Assembly: GCA_004292755.1 (NCBI GenBank)
Contig: RDXE01000026.1
Coordinates: 62,001-126,000 of the forward strand
From: Alphaproteobacteria bacterium
GTDB lineage: Bacteria > Pseudomonadota > Alphaproteobacteria > Elsterales > Elsteraceae
Direction of reading: 5' to 3'
Length of the DNA stretch: 64,000 bases
Positions within the stretch are counted from its first letter, which is position 1; each line of letters starts with the position of its first letter. A program made the position numbers and the translations under genes. The notes under the pieces were generated by a model. The model saw only the letters and a list, made by a program, of their open reading frames with translations, was not told where the DNA came from and made no database searches. Below, piece by piece: positions 45,837-48,332 of this stretch.

Positions 45837-46655
45837 TCAACCAGGACACCGACCAAGGGCGTCCAAACCCAAGTCGGCCGCGGTCCATGGTCCTGAATGC
45901 CGACGATCATTCAGAATTCTCAACACCCCCGGACAATTCGCCAACGCCACAGTCAGGCGTGCTTGGGTGGGCGGCGGCACCTCGGTATCGCGATAGGACC
46001 AGATATGCCGCTGCGGCAAGTGTCGCAGGGCGGGAATCAAGGTCAGTGCAGAGGGAGCGGGCAGTGGCGTGATGGTCAGCCCCGTGGTCCAGCCCGCCAC
46101 ATCAATCGGCGCTGCGATGGTGACCAACCCGCTGACATCGCGCCGCGCCGCCGCCAACGCGGCGGCGATCGTGCCACCGCCAGAGAAGCCAACCAGCACC
46201 ACGCTGTCGGCGTCCGCCAGTTGTTTCAGGCGATCCACTGCGGCGCCGTGGCGGGCGATGGTGGCGTCGGTAAAACGCTCCATGGTCCAGAGCGTCGGGC
46301 GACAGGCGGGTTCGACCGCCACACGATACTGGCAAGGGCGGGCCAGCACGGCGACGGGTTCGGCAATCTGCCCCGCGAGGCGCAGCGCGATGGGATCGAC
46401 CGGCGTAGGATCGGCCGAGGGTTCCCGCGCGCTGATCCAGGCCAAGCCATCGCCCTCAATCAGCACGGTCAGCACGCGGCCCTGCCCGCGCCGCCATGCA
46501 GCGAAGGCTGGGCCGCCTGTCACTGGCAGCACGACGGGGTCAAGCCGCAGAGACTGGGCGAGGCGATCCGCCTCGCCCCGCCGGGCCTCGGGCGGCGGCA
46601 AGCTGCAACCGGCGATCACCAGCAGCAGCGCAGCAAACCAAAGAGCTGGTTTCAG
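45837..46655 (-). CDS. Alpha/beta-hydrolase lipoprotein with apparent CTG start
   Basis: A serine hydrolase with the nucleophile elbow GFSGGG (near residue 155 of the 272-residue product), DRRHSGPW at the end supplying the His, and an Asp in SYRDTE. The only canonical in-frame start, GTG 46619, would begin inside a lipoprotein signal. A CTG at 46655, with GAGG eight bases upstream, gives MKPALWFAALLLVIAGC with an ideal charge, hydrophobic core and lipobox, and overlaps the previous gene's stop as CTGA. I therefore annotate the CTG start. Substrate unknown. Confidence 0.7.
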   Translation of the reverse strand: MKPALWFAALLLVIAGCSLPPPEARRGEADRLAQSLRLDPVVLPVTGGPAFAAWRRGQGRVLTVLIEGDGLAWISAREPSADPTPVDPIALRLAGQIAEPVAVLARPCQYRVAVEPACRPTLWTMERFTDATIARHGAAVDRLKQLADADSVVLVGFSGGGTIAAALAAARRDVSGLVTIAAPIDVAGWTTGLTITPLPAPSALTLIPALRHLPQRHIWSYRDTEVPPPTQARLTVALANCPGVLRILNDRRHSGPWTAADLGLDALGRCPG

Positions 46656-48214
46656 AACCGGATCCTCAAGGTGGCGGCGACTGAGCGGTCAGTCACCGCG
46701 TCTTTCAGTTCCACAGTCGTCGCCTGGATCGCAAGCCGAACTTGATCATGCAAGGCAAAGCGCAGACCCGCACTCAGGGCGAGGCCAAACCGGTTGACCT
46801 CTGGTCCGATGTCCCCGGTTTCGTATTCGCCACCAACACCCACAAACGGCTCCCACCCCTGGTAGTGATAGCCGACCTCGGTGCCCAGACGGGCGAGGCC
46901 GATTGTGTTGCGGCTACCCTCCACCCGCACACCCGCCCGGTCCGTGTAGGCAGATAGCTTTTCGACCGCGTGGCTATAGCTCAGATAGGGCGCAACCACG
47001 ATCGCGTTGAATACATAGGCGCCGCTCAACACCACACCGCCACCGACGCGATGGCCGGAGTAGTTGGAGGTCATATCGCCAAAGCGCTGATCGCTGCGGC
47101 TGAACTCATTGTCCAGCCACGTGTAGCCAACAAAAGCGCCCAGGGAGAGATTCTGCGTGATCTGTGCCGCGACATAGGGCGTGAAGGACGTGCCGACGGC
47201 CATCAGCCGCCCCCGGACATCCGGCAGGTCCAGACCAGTGCGGGCATAGCTGATGGCAGCCCCAACAGTCAGCCAGCCGACGGTGTGGTCCAACCCAATC
47301 GCCAACGCATGACCATCGCCATCGAACCGAGCACCCCGCGCCTTACCTTCCAGGAAGGAGACTGAGCCGTCGAGCCAGGCACCCCACTGACTCAAACCAT
47401 CGCCACCATTGGCACCCAGCGCCTCGCCATTGGCGGGGGCTAAGGCCGCGATGCCTGCGCGTGCGCGCGCCTGGTTGGCCCCGATGCTCTGCACACGGGT
47501 GCCGACCATGCCATTGCTAGCGCGGGTTTGTGCCGCAGCGGAACTCCGACCAGCAGCAGCCGTGCTGGTCTGCACGGCAGCTGGAGCCGTCGTAGGCGGC
47601 AGGACTGGCTCCACCGGTGTGGCCGTCGCCGTGGTGGTCGTGGTTGACGGAGTGGTGGTGGTGGTCGTCGGAGTGGTTGGGGTTGGTGAGGCTGGCGTGG
47701 CTGGCGCGGTCGGTGCCGTTGGTGCCGTCGGCGCGGTCGTGGTGGTCAAGGTGGCCGCGTTGTTCGGGTCCAGGGCGGCCGCGAAAGTATCGCAGCTGCC
47801 AGACGCCACGGTGGACCGTCCATTGGTGGTGCGGATCGCGCAGGAGAAGGGCGTTGTCGTCCCGTTCACCGTGGTGGTTCCGCTGTAGTTGATCAGCGTG
47901 GTGTCGGTCAGCTGCGCCGTCCCGGTTGCGGTGAACGACAAGGAATTGTTCTGCACCAGCGGGCCTGAGCCCGTACCATTGATCGAGAATGAAATCGCTG
48001 TGCCGCCAAACGTGCTGTTGCTGGTGGTATTGAAGCGCGATCCGTCGGTGTAGTTGATTGCAGTGGATACTGATGTGCCGCTGGTCGCAACAGTTGTGGT
48101 AAATCCAATCCCATTCGGCAGTGTCCCCGTCGAGCTGAAGCTTTGCGCCGCAGCAGTAGAGATAGCAAACCCACTCGCACCCAAAACTAAGATTGCCGCC
48201 AAGCCCCTGCGCAT
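46652..48214 (-). CDS. Autotransporter-like outer-membrane beta-barrel protein
   Basis: A 520-residue protein from ATG 48214 with a GAGGTGG site. The signal peptide (MRRGLAAILVLGASGF, cleaved near AAAQS) is followed by a Ser/Thr/Asn-rich N-terminal region, a Thr/Pro low-complexity linker (about residues 165-220) and a C-terminal barrel of about 250 residues, rich in alternating aromatic strands (SGAYVFNAIVVAPYLSYSHAVE) and ending in the outer-membrane signature RIRF. The short passenger and linker are unusual. It may be an adhesin-like surface protein. Confidence 0.82.
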   Translation of the reverse strand: MRRGLAAILVLGASGFAISTAAAQSFSSTGTLPNGIGFTTTVATSGTSVSTAINYTDGSRFNTTSNSTFGGTAISFSINGTGSGPLVQNNSLSFTATGTAQLTDTTLINYSGTTTVNGTTTPFSCAIRTTNGRSTVASGSCDTFAAALDPNNAATLTTTTAPTAPTAPTAPATPASPTPTTPTTTTTTPSTTTTTATATPVEPVLPPTTAPAAVQTSTAAAGRSSAAAQTRASNGMVGTRVQSIGANQARARAGIAALAPANGEALGANGGDGLSQWGAWLDGSVSFLEGKARGARFDGDGHALAIGLDHTVGWLTVGAAISYARTGLDLPDVRGRLMAVGTSFTPYVAAQITQNLSLGAFVGYTWLDNEFSRSDQRFGDMTSNYSGHRVGGGVVLSGAYVFNAIVVAPYLSYSHAVEKLSAYTDRAGVRVEGSRNTIGLARLGTEVGYHYQGWEPFVGVGGEYETGDIGPEVNRFGLALSAGLRFALHDQVRLAIQATTVELKDAVTDRSVAATLRIRF

Positions 48215-48332
48215 GTCGCCACCTCGTCTGTTTCGACTCATCGATATCTGTACCGCGATCCCCACGGCTCTGCGGTCCGCCTTTCTGTTTGGCTAAAAAG
48301 CGCCCCAATGTCAAAGAGAGTTCGTTGCGCGA

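What the first reader, a model, noticed from the sequence alone, without database searches (positions are those of the whole stretch)
45837..46667. Lipoprotein hydrolase apparently starting at CTG, overlapping the previous stop as CTGA
Between the upstream in-frame stop and the first GTG there is no ATG, GTG or TTG, but the codons just upstream of that GTG encode a perfect lipoprotein signal (charge, hydrophobic core, VIAGC). A CTG at 46655 is preceded by GAGG eight bases away and overlaps the autotransporter TGA by the same 4-base geometry as ATGA. CTG initiation is rare in bacteria.
Basis: seen in the sequence. Interest (0 to 1): 0.6.

Follow-up and report, generated by a model that had tools for sequence, protein, structure and literature searches.

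The report
Rare CTG-start envelope lipoprotein hydrolase gene
A bacterial gene for a membrane-anchored hydrolase appears to start at the rarely used codon CTG, overlapping the end of the outer-membrane gene before it; rare starts of this kind are known, but the two-gene partnership it reveals recurs in many bacteria and seems little studied.

Summary
On the minus strand, an intact 272-codon frame (CTG 46655 to stop 45837) encodes an alpha/beta-hydrolase. Its only codons upstream of the GTG at 46619 are 11 non-start codons after an in-frame TGA (46691-46689), then the CTG stretch. CTG overlaps the preceding gene's stop as CTGA, with GAGG 8 nt upstream. Starting at GTG would leave MIAGC and destroy the signal peptide. 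A family of homologues (80 loci kept of 286 found, 29-47% identity) shows that the signal peptide is real: 78 of 80 have a lipobox Cys in place, the Cys, Ser-Asp-His triad and IEGDGLAW motif are invariant in 25 aligned members, and 76 of 78 have ATG/GTG/TTG where the window has only CTG. So CTG initiation by coupled reinitiation is the best reading (about 0.72); it remains unproved, and no close relative carries the junction. It is rare but not new biology.

The parts
45837..46655 (-). lipoprotein alpha/beta-hydrolase gene, 272 aa read from CTG
   Evidence: Translation; Abhydrolase_1 E=4e-6 above the gathering score; family alignment; AlphaFold2 mean pLDDT 88.2, Foldseek matches to esterases
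46653..46655 (-). CTG, proposed start codon; forms CTGA with the upstream stop
   Evidence: Sequence; no ATG/GTG/TTG between the in-frame TGA and GTG 46619; homologues have ATG/GTG/TTG at the corresponding place
46664..46667 (-). GAGG, Shine-Dalgarno-like, 8 nt before CTG
   Evidence: Sequence. The genome's own 16S 3' end could not be read: no RF00177 match in the held assembly
46605..46655 (-). lipoprotein signal peptide LKPALWFAALLLVIAG-C with lipobox VIAGC, Cys17
   Evidence: Cys17 invariant in 25 of 25 aligned members
46617..46619 (-). GTG, first conventional start codon, inside the signal peptide; rejected as start
   Evidence: the ORF listing gives MIAGCSLPPP...; no signal peptide remains
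46689..46691 (-). in-frame TGA that bounds the frame upstream, 11 codons before CTG
   Evidence: Sequence; open frame 283 aa
46652..48265 (-). autotransporter gene (signal peptide, short passenger, T/P-rich linker, beta-barrel ending in F)
   Evidence: PF03797 E=8.6e-21; only PF03797 match found in the genome

Best explanation
The second gene of a two-gene envelope operon is translated from CUG. Ribosomes that finish the autotransporter at UGA, helped by the GAGG eight bases upstream, reinitiate (presumably with fMet) at the overlapping CUG and make a 272-residue pre-lipoprotein. Its signal peptide would be cleaved before Cys17 and the Cys lipidated, leaving an alpha/beta-hydrolase (Ser158, Asp223, His253) anchored in the envelope beside its autotransporter partner. 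Shown: the sequence, lack of other starts, intact frame, conserved lipobox and triad, recurrent gene pairing. Inferred: actual use of CUG, reinitiation rather than fresh initiation, low yield relative to the barrel, lipidation, catalysis and the working partnership.
For: Only CTG is available between the in-frame TGA and the signal-peptide core before GTG. Homologues fix the N-terminus: lipobox Cys found in 78 of 80 loci, and 76 of these 78 have ATG/GTG/TTG 12-45 codons before it; in a second set of 30 class loci 29 have a lipobox, all 29 with such a start. L007, L056 and L057 start MKP..., matching LKP.... Cys17, Ser158, Asp223 and His253 invariant in 25 of 25. The autotransporter ends ...RIRF*, the terminal Phe usual for outer-membrane barrels (recalled), so its stop is the natural one. 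Pairing: PF03797 in the upstream ORF of 34 of 69 loci plus the window and of 10 of 24 class loci.
Against: No translation, proteomic or read data. CUG is rarely used: 2 of 61,358 reconstructed AUG starts switched to CUG (PMC5622118, passages), and a CUG seen by toeprint in Caulobacter dnaA is not used in vivo (PMC8443254, passages). No close relative has the junction. A hairpin precedes the SD, but folding is not exceptional (z -1.78). L039 and L053 also lack a nearby usual start, so odd N-termini occur in draft assemblies.
Confidence: 0.72

Rival explanations
1. Consensus error in a draft genome: the true base at 46655 gives ATG, GTG or TTG, i.e. an ordinary ATGA-type overlap.
For: The held assembly is a draft of 95 contigs; all but two homologues with a lipobox have a usual start; ATGA is the commonest overlap in the genome sample, 29 of 53.
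Against: No sign of poor sequence nearby: both flanking frames are intact. Single-base consensus errors are rare in well covered assemblies (general knowledge; coverage here unknown).
Confidence: 0.12
2. Decaying gene: an ancestral start mutated to CTG and the hydrolase is now hardly made or on its way to being lost; the other genomes of the family lack it.
For: 0 of 8 other family genomes have it; several residues common in the family, such as the HxCCW motif at the catalytic His, are changed here.
Against: No stop or frameshift in 272 codons; all invariant residues of the alignment including the triad kept; good SD geometry kept.
Confidence: 0.1
3. Translation starts at GTG 46619 and gives a 260-aa cytoplasmic hydrolase.
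For: GTG is a usual start and would be chosen by a caller restricted to ATG/GTG/TTG.
Against: It cuts the signal peptide in two; family members have the lipobox Cys (78 of 80); no SD-like sequence at usual spacing.
Confidence: 0.03
4. Ribosomal frameshift or readthrough fuses the hydrolase to the C-terminus of the autotransporter.
For: The two frames overlap for some 38 bases before the autotransporter stop.
Against: The barrel would lose its free C-terminal Phe; the signal peptide would be internal; separate genes in homologues, usually with a gap.
Confidence: 0.03

Closest known systems
Bacterial CUG starts (NCBI table 11 lists CTG as a possible start, recalled; candidate pop gene of E. coli O157:H7, PMC7103648, passages read)
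   Same: SD-preceded CUG proposed as initiator
   Different: Here the CUG overlaps an upstream stop and is backed by homologues with a usual start at the same place, not by ribosome data
ATGA-type overlapping gene pairs with termination-reinitiation (PMC6728339, PMC10666635, passages read)
   Same: Four-base stop/start overlap with an SD inside the upstream gene
   Different: CTGA instead of ATGA; coupling not measured here
Alpha/beta-hydrolase fold esterases (Pfam Abhydrolase_1; Foldseek top hits such as puromycin hydrolase 3azo, EstD11, feruloyl/chlorogenic acid esterases)
   Same: Fold, nucleophile elbow and triad order
   Different: Sequence identity 10-19% to the listed structures; lipid-anchored; own motif IEGDGLAW...DPTP; substrate unknown
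Type Va autotransporters (PF03797)
   Same: Upstream gene has the beta-domain and terminal Phe
   Different: Paired with a lipoprotein hydrolase gene; passenger has no Pfam match

Membership tests
Alpha/beta-hydrolase fold | Profile match above curated cut-off | tested here: met
   Abhydrolase_1 27.1 bits against 25.8
Alpha/beta-hydrolase fold | Ser-Asp-His triad in order, Ser in GxSxG | tested here: met
   G-F-S158-G-G, D223, H253, S/D/H invariant in 25 of 25; role in catalysis not tested
Alpha/beta-hydrolase fold | Fold | tested here: met
   Model pLDDT 88.2, pTM 0.88; Foldseek top hits E about 1e-10 but TM only about 0.5
Bacterial lipoprotein | Charged N-region, hydrophobic core, lipobox, Cys | tested here: met
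   LKPALWFAALLLVIAGC; Cys17 invariant in the 25 aligned. Holds only if translation starts at or before CTG
Bacterial lipoprotein | Lipidation of Cys | not testable with these tools
   needs labelling or mass spectrometry
CUG-initiated gene | No conventional start available for the conserved N-terminus | tested here: met
CUG-initiated gene | Initiation at CUG shown by ribosome or peptide data | not testable with these tools
   none held
Translationally coupled overlapping pair | Stop/start overlap of 4 bases with SD | tested here: met
   CTGA and GAGG at 8 nt
Translationally coupled overlapping pair | Downstream yield depends on upstream translation | not testable with these tools
   needs reporters
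Type Va autotransporter (upstream gene) | PF03797 beta-domain at the C-terminus | tested here: met
   E=8.6e-21, residues 297-493 of 537

The most novel reading that the evidence does not exclude
The autotransporter and the lipid-anchored hydrolase are two parts of one undescribed outer-membrane system found across Proteobacteria: the barrel displays, exports or is modified by its cognate hydrolase. In this species the hydrolase is deliberately rationed by coupling it to barrel translation through a weak CUG restart.
Probability: 0.25. Interest if true: 0.6.

Novelty: new member of a known kind. Interest (0 to 1): 0.36.

Why it matters
Gene callers that allow only ATG, GTG and TTG would place this start inside the signal peptide and call an envelope lipoprotein cytoplasmic. 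It is a clean natural test case for CUG restart after a stop. The recurrent neighbour suggests that an uncharacterised hydrolase family works with autotransporters.

Tried and rejected
A second CTG start was sought among homologues. L075 has CTGA at its junction, but a TTG two codons later is better placed behind its GAGG, so it is no CTG case. L039 has no usual start close by, but a long open frame with starts further up. L053 lacks one too, but has a run of seven G just upstream, so an indel in that draft is likely. Both are left as unexplained.

Relaxed start selection by an unusual initiator tRNA was considered. It could not be tested: two patterns for the initiator arm found nothing, the window and 20 own-genome stretches held only one CAT-anticodon tRNA, which by its sequence looks like an elongator, and no 16S was found, so that part of the genome is probably missing from the assembly.

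The sequence search of the PDB gave only short weak esterase matches. Paper searches (listings only) showed nothing on the gene pair; two searches gave nothing useful.

Full report
OBSERVATION. The minus strand reads TGA CCG CTC AGT CGC CGC CAC CTT GAG GAT CCG GTT CTG AAA CCA GCT... with CTG at 46655-46653. The TGA at 46691-46689 closes the frame upstream and the first ATG/GTG/TTG is GTG 46619. From CTG the frame is open for 272 codons to the stop ending at 45837, and the whole open frame is 283 codons. The autotransporter frame ends ...TLRIRF and its TGA overlaps CTG as CTGA. GAGG stands 8 bases before CTG.

THE PROTEIN. Pfam gives Abhydrolase_1 (E=4e-6, 27.1 bits, cut-off 25.8). A scan of genome contigs found 286 stretches that encode relatives; the best 80 were kept (29-47% identity in the best segment). 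In an alignment of the window protein with 24 of these, whose starts I chose by script or by hand, Cys17, IEGDGLAW (66-73), Ser158 with flanking glycines, Asp223 and His253 are invariant. Because the starts were chosen, the conserved M1 in that alignment is not independent evidence. The AlphaFold2 model has mean pLDDT 88.2 with helix 3-15 as the signal peptide. Foldseek ranks puromycin hydrolase, carboxylesterases and feruloyl/chlorogenic acid esterases first, with TM about 0.5 and 10-19% identity, so the fold is clear but the substrate is not.

THE START. Of the 80 kept loci, a lipobox Cys at the expected place was found in 78, and 76 of the 78 have ATG, GTG or TTG 12-45 codons before it; the exceptions are L039 and L053. 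Of 30 further loci from 385 genomes of the class, 29 have the lipobox and all 29 a usual start. Three homologues start MKP (L007, L056, L057) against LKP here. The window's N-terminus is thus the family's ordinary signal peptide with CTG in place of the start codon. In a 369,932-base sample of the genome (63.5% G+C, 306 genes called by my own simple codon-usage script, not a standard caller) the 53 four-base overlaps were ATG 29, GTG 11, CTG 10, TTG 3; inspection of the 10 CTG cases shows an ATG/GTG/TTG nearby that can serve in 9, the window being the exception. So CTG starts are not a habit of this genome as far as sampled. A relaxed lipobox survey found 5 cases in called genes and 4 of 5 have a usual start; a stricter one gave 3 of 4. 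These numbers are small.

HOW RARE. [quoted passage not shown] author name recalled). [quoted passage not shown] In M. [quoted passage not shown] In Caulobacter dnaA a CUG gives a toeprint but is not used in vivo (PMC8443254, passages). A CTG start has been proposed for E. coli pop (PMC7103648, passages). Four-base overlaps with an inner SD are typical of termination-reinitiation (PMC6728339 and PMC10666635, passages). CTG as start is therefore unusual, not unheard of.

THE PARTNER. I took the last 330 residues or fewer of the nearest same-strand ORF upstream in 69 of the 80 loci (11 had none that passed the script's rule) plus the window; 35 of these 70 match PF03797. In the class loci 10 of 24 upstream ORFs match (6 of 30 gave no ORF). 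Downstream, by a looser rule that takes either strand, 9 of 72 match (8 of the 80 loci gave no usable ORF); this was meant as a control but shows that the partner can also lie on the other side. In the window's genome PF03797 has exactly one match, the gene directly upstream. In the class sample 62 of 69 genomes with the hydrolase have PF03797 and 121 of 316 without the hydrolase do (Fisher odds ratio 14, p=7e-16; with the four weakest hydrolase matches taken as absent, 59 of 65 against 124 of 320). Shared ancestry and genome size are not corrected for in this test. Of the other 8 genomes of the family none has the hydrolase and none matches this autotransporter protein, though three of the four other family genomes included in the class sample have another PF03797 gene. 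Other upstream neighbours also occur, among them sulfotransferases (5 of 70), so the pair is frequent but not obligate. Ten upstream proteins scanned whole showed only the beta-domain and, in three, the extended signal peptide ESPR; no passenger family was recognised.

MECHANISM. Most likely the ribosome ending the autotransporter restarts at the overlapping CUG with help from GAGG. The mRNA around the junction folds with an 11-pair hairpin before the SD, but the region is not more stable than chance would allow (z -1.78, 12 of 200 shuffles as stable), so I give it no weight. A weak start would yield less hydrolase than barrel; this is inference.

LIMITS. There are no reads, expression data or close relatives; the assembly held lacks a detectable 16S gene, and no initiator tRNA was found with my patterns, so neither the anti-SD nor the initiator of this organism was examined.

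VERDICT. The start is a rare variant of known biology; the recurrent pairing is the more useful lead.

Noticed in passing
window 46652-48265 and homologue loci L007, L009, L013, L017, L023, L028, L036, L056, L067, L073: Autotransporter-domain gene directly upstream of the lipoprotein hydrolase in many Proteobacteria; the only PF03797 gene found in the window's genome.
   Followed up: yes
window, minus strand, about 45776 down to about 45566: A short frame starting MRVILAMAAAMTLLAACAEKP behind GAGGGAGG looks like a second, small lipoprotein just downstream of the hydrolase.
   Followed up: no
window 47690-47782 (+): ARAGORN calls a tRNA-Gly inside the antisense of the autotransporter's T/P-rich linker; probably a false positive from repeats.
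   Followed up: no
L053 2940-3060: Homologue with no ATG/GTG/TTG in its upstream frame; a run of seven G just before the signal peptide suggests an indel in that draft.
   Followed up: partly
homologue loci, upstream and downstream ORFs: Sulfotransferase-domain genes upstream of the hydrolase in 5 of 70 and downstream in 4 of 72; a possible alternative partner.
   Followed up: no
window 46610-46700 (minus strand): Perfect 11-pair hairpin in the last codons of the autotransporter, just before the SD of the hydrolase.
   Followed up: partly
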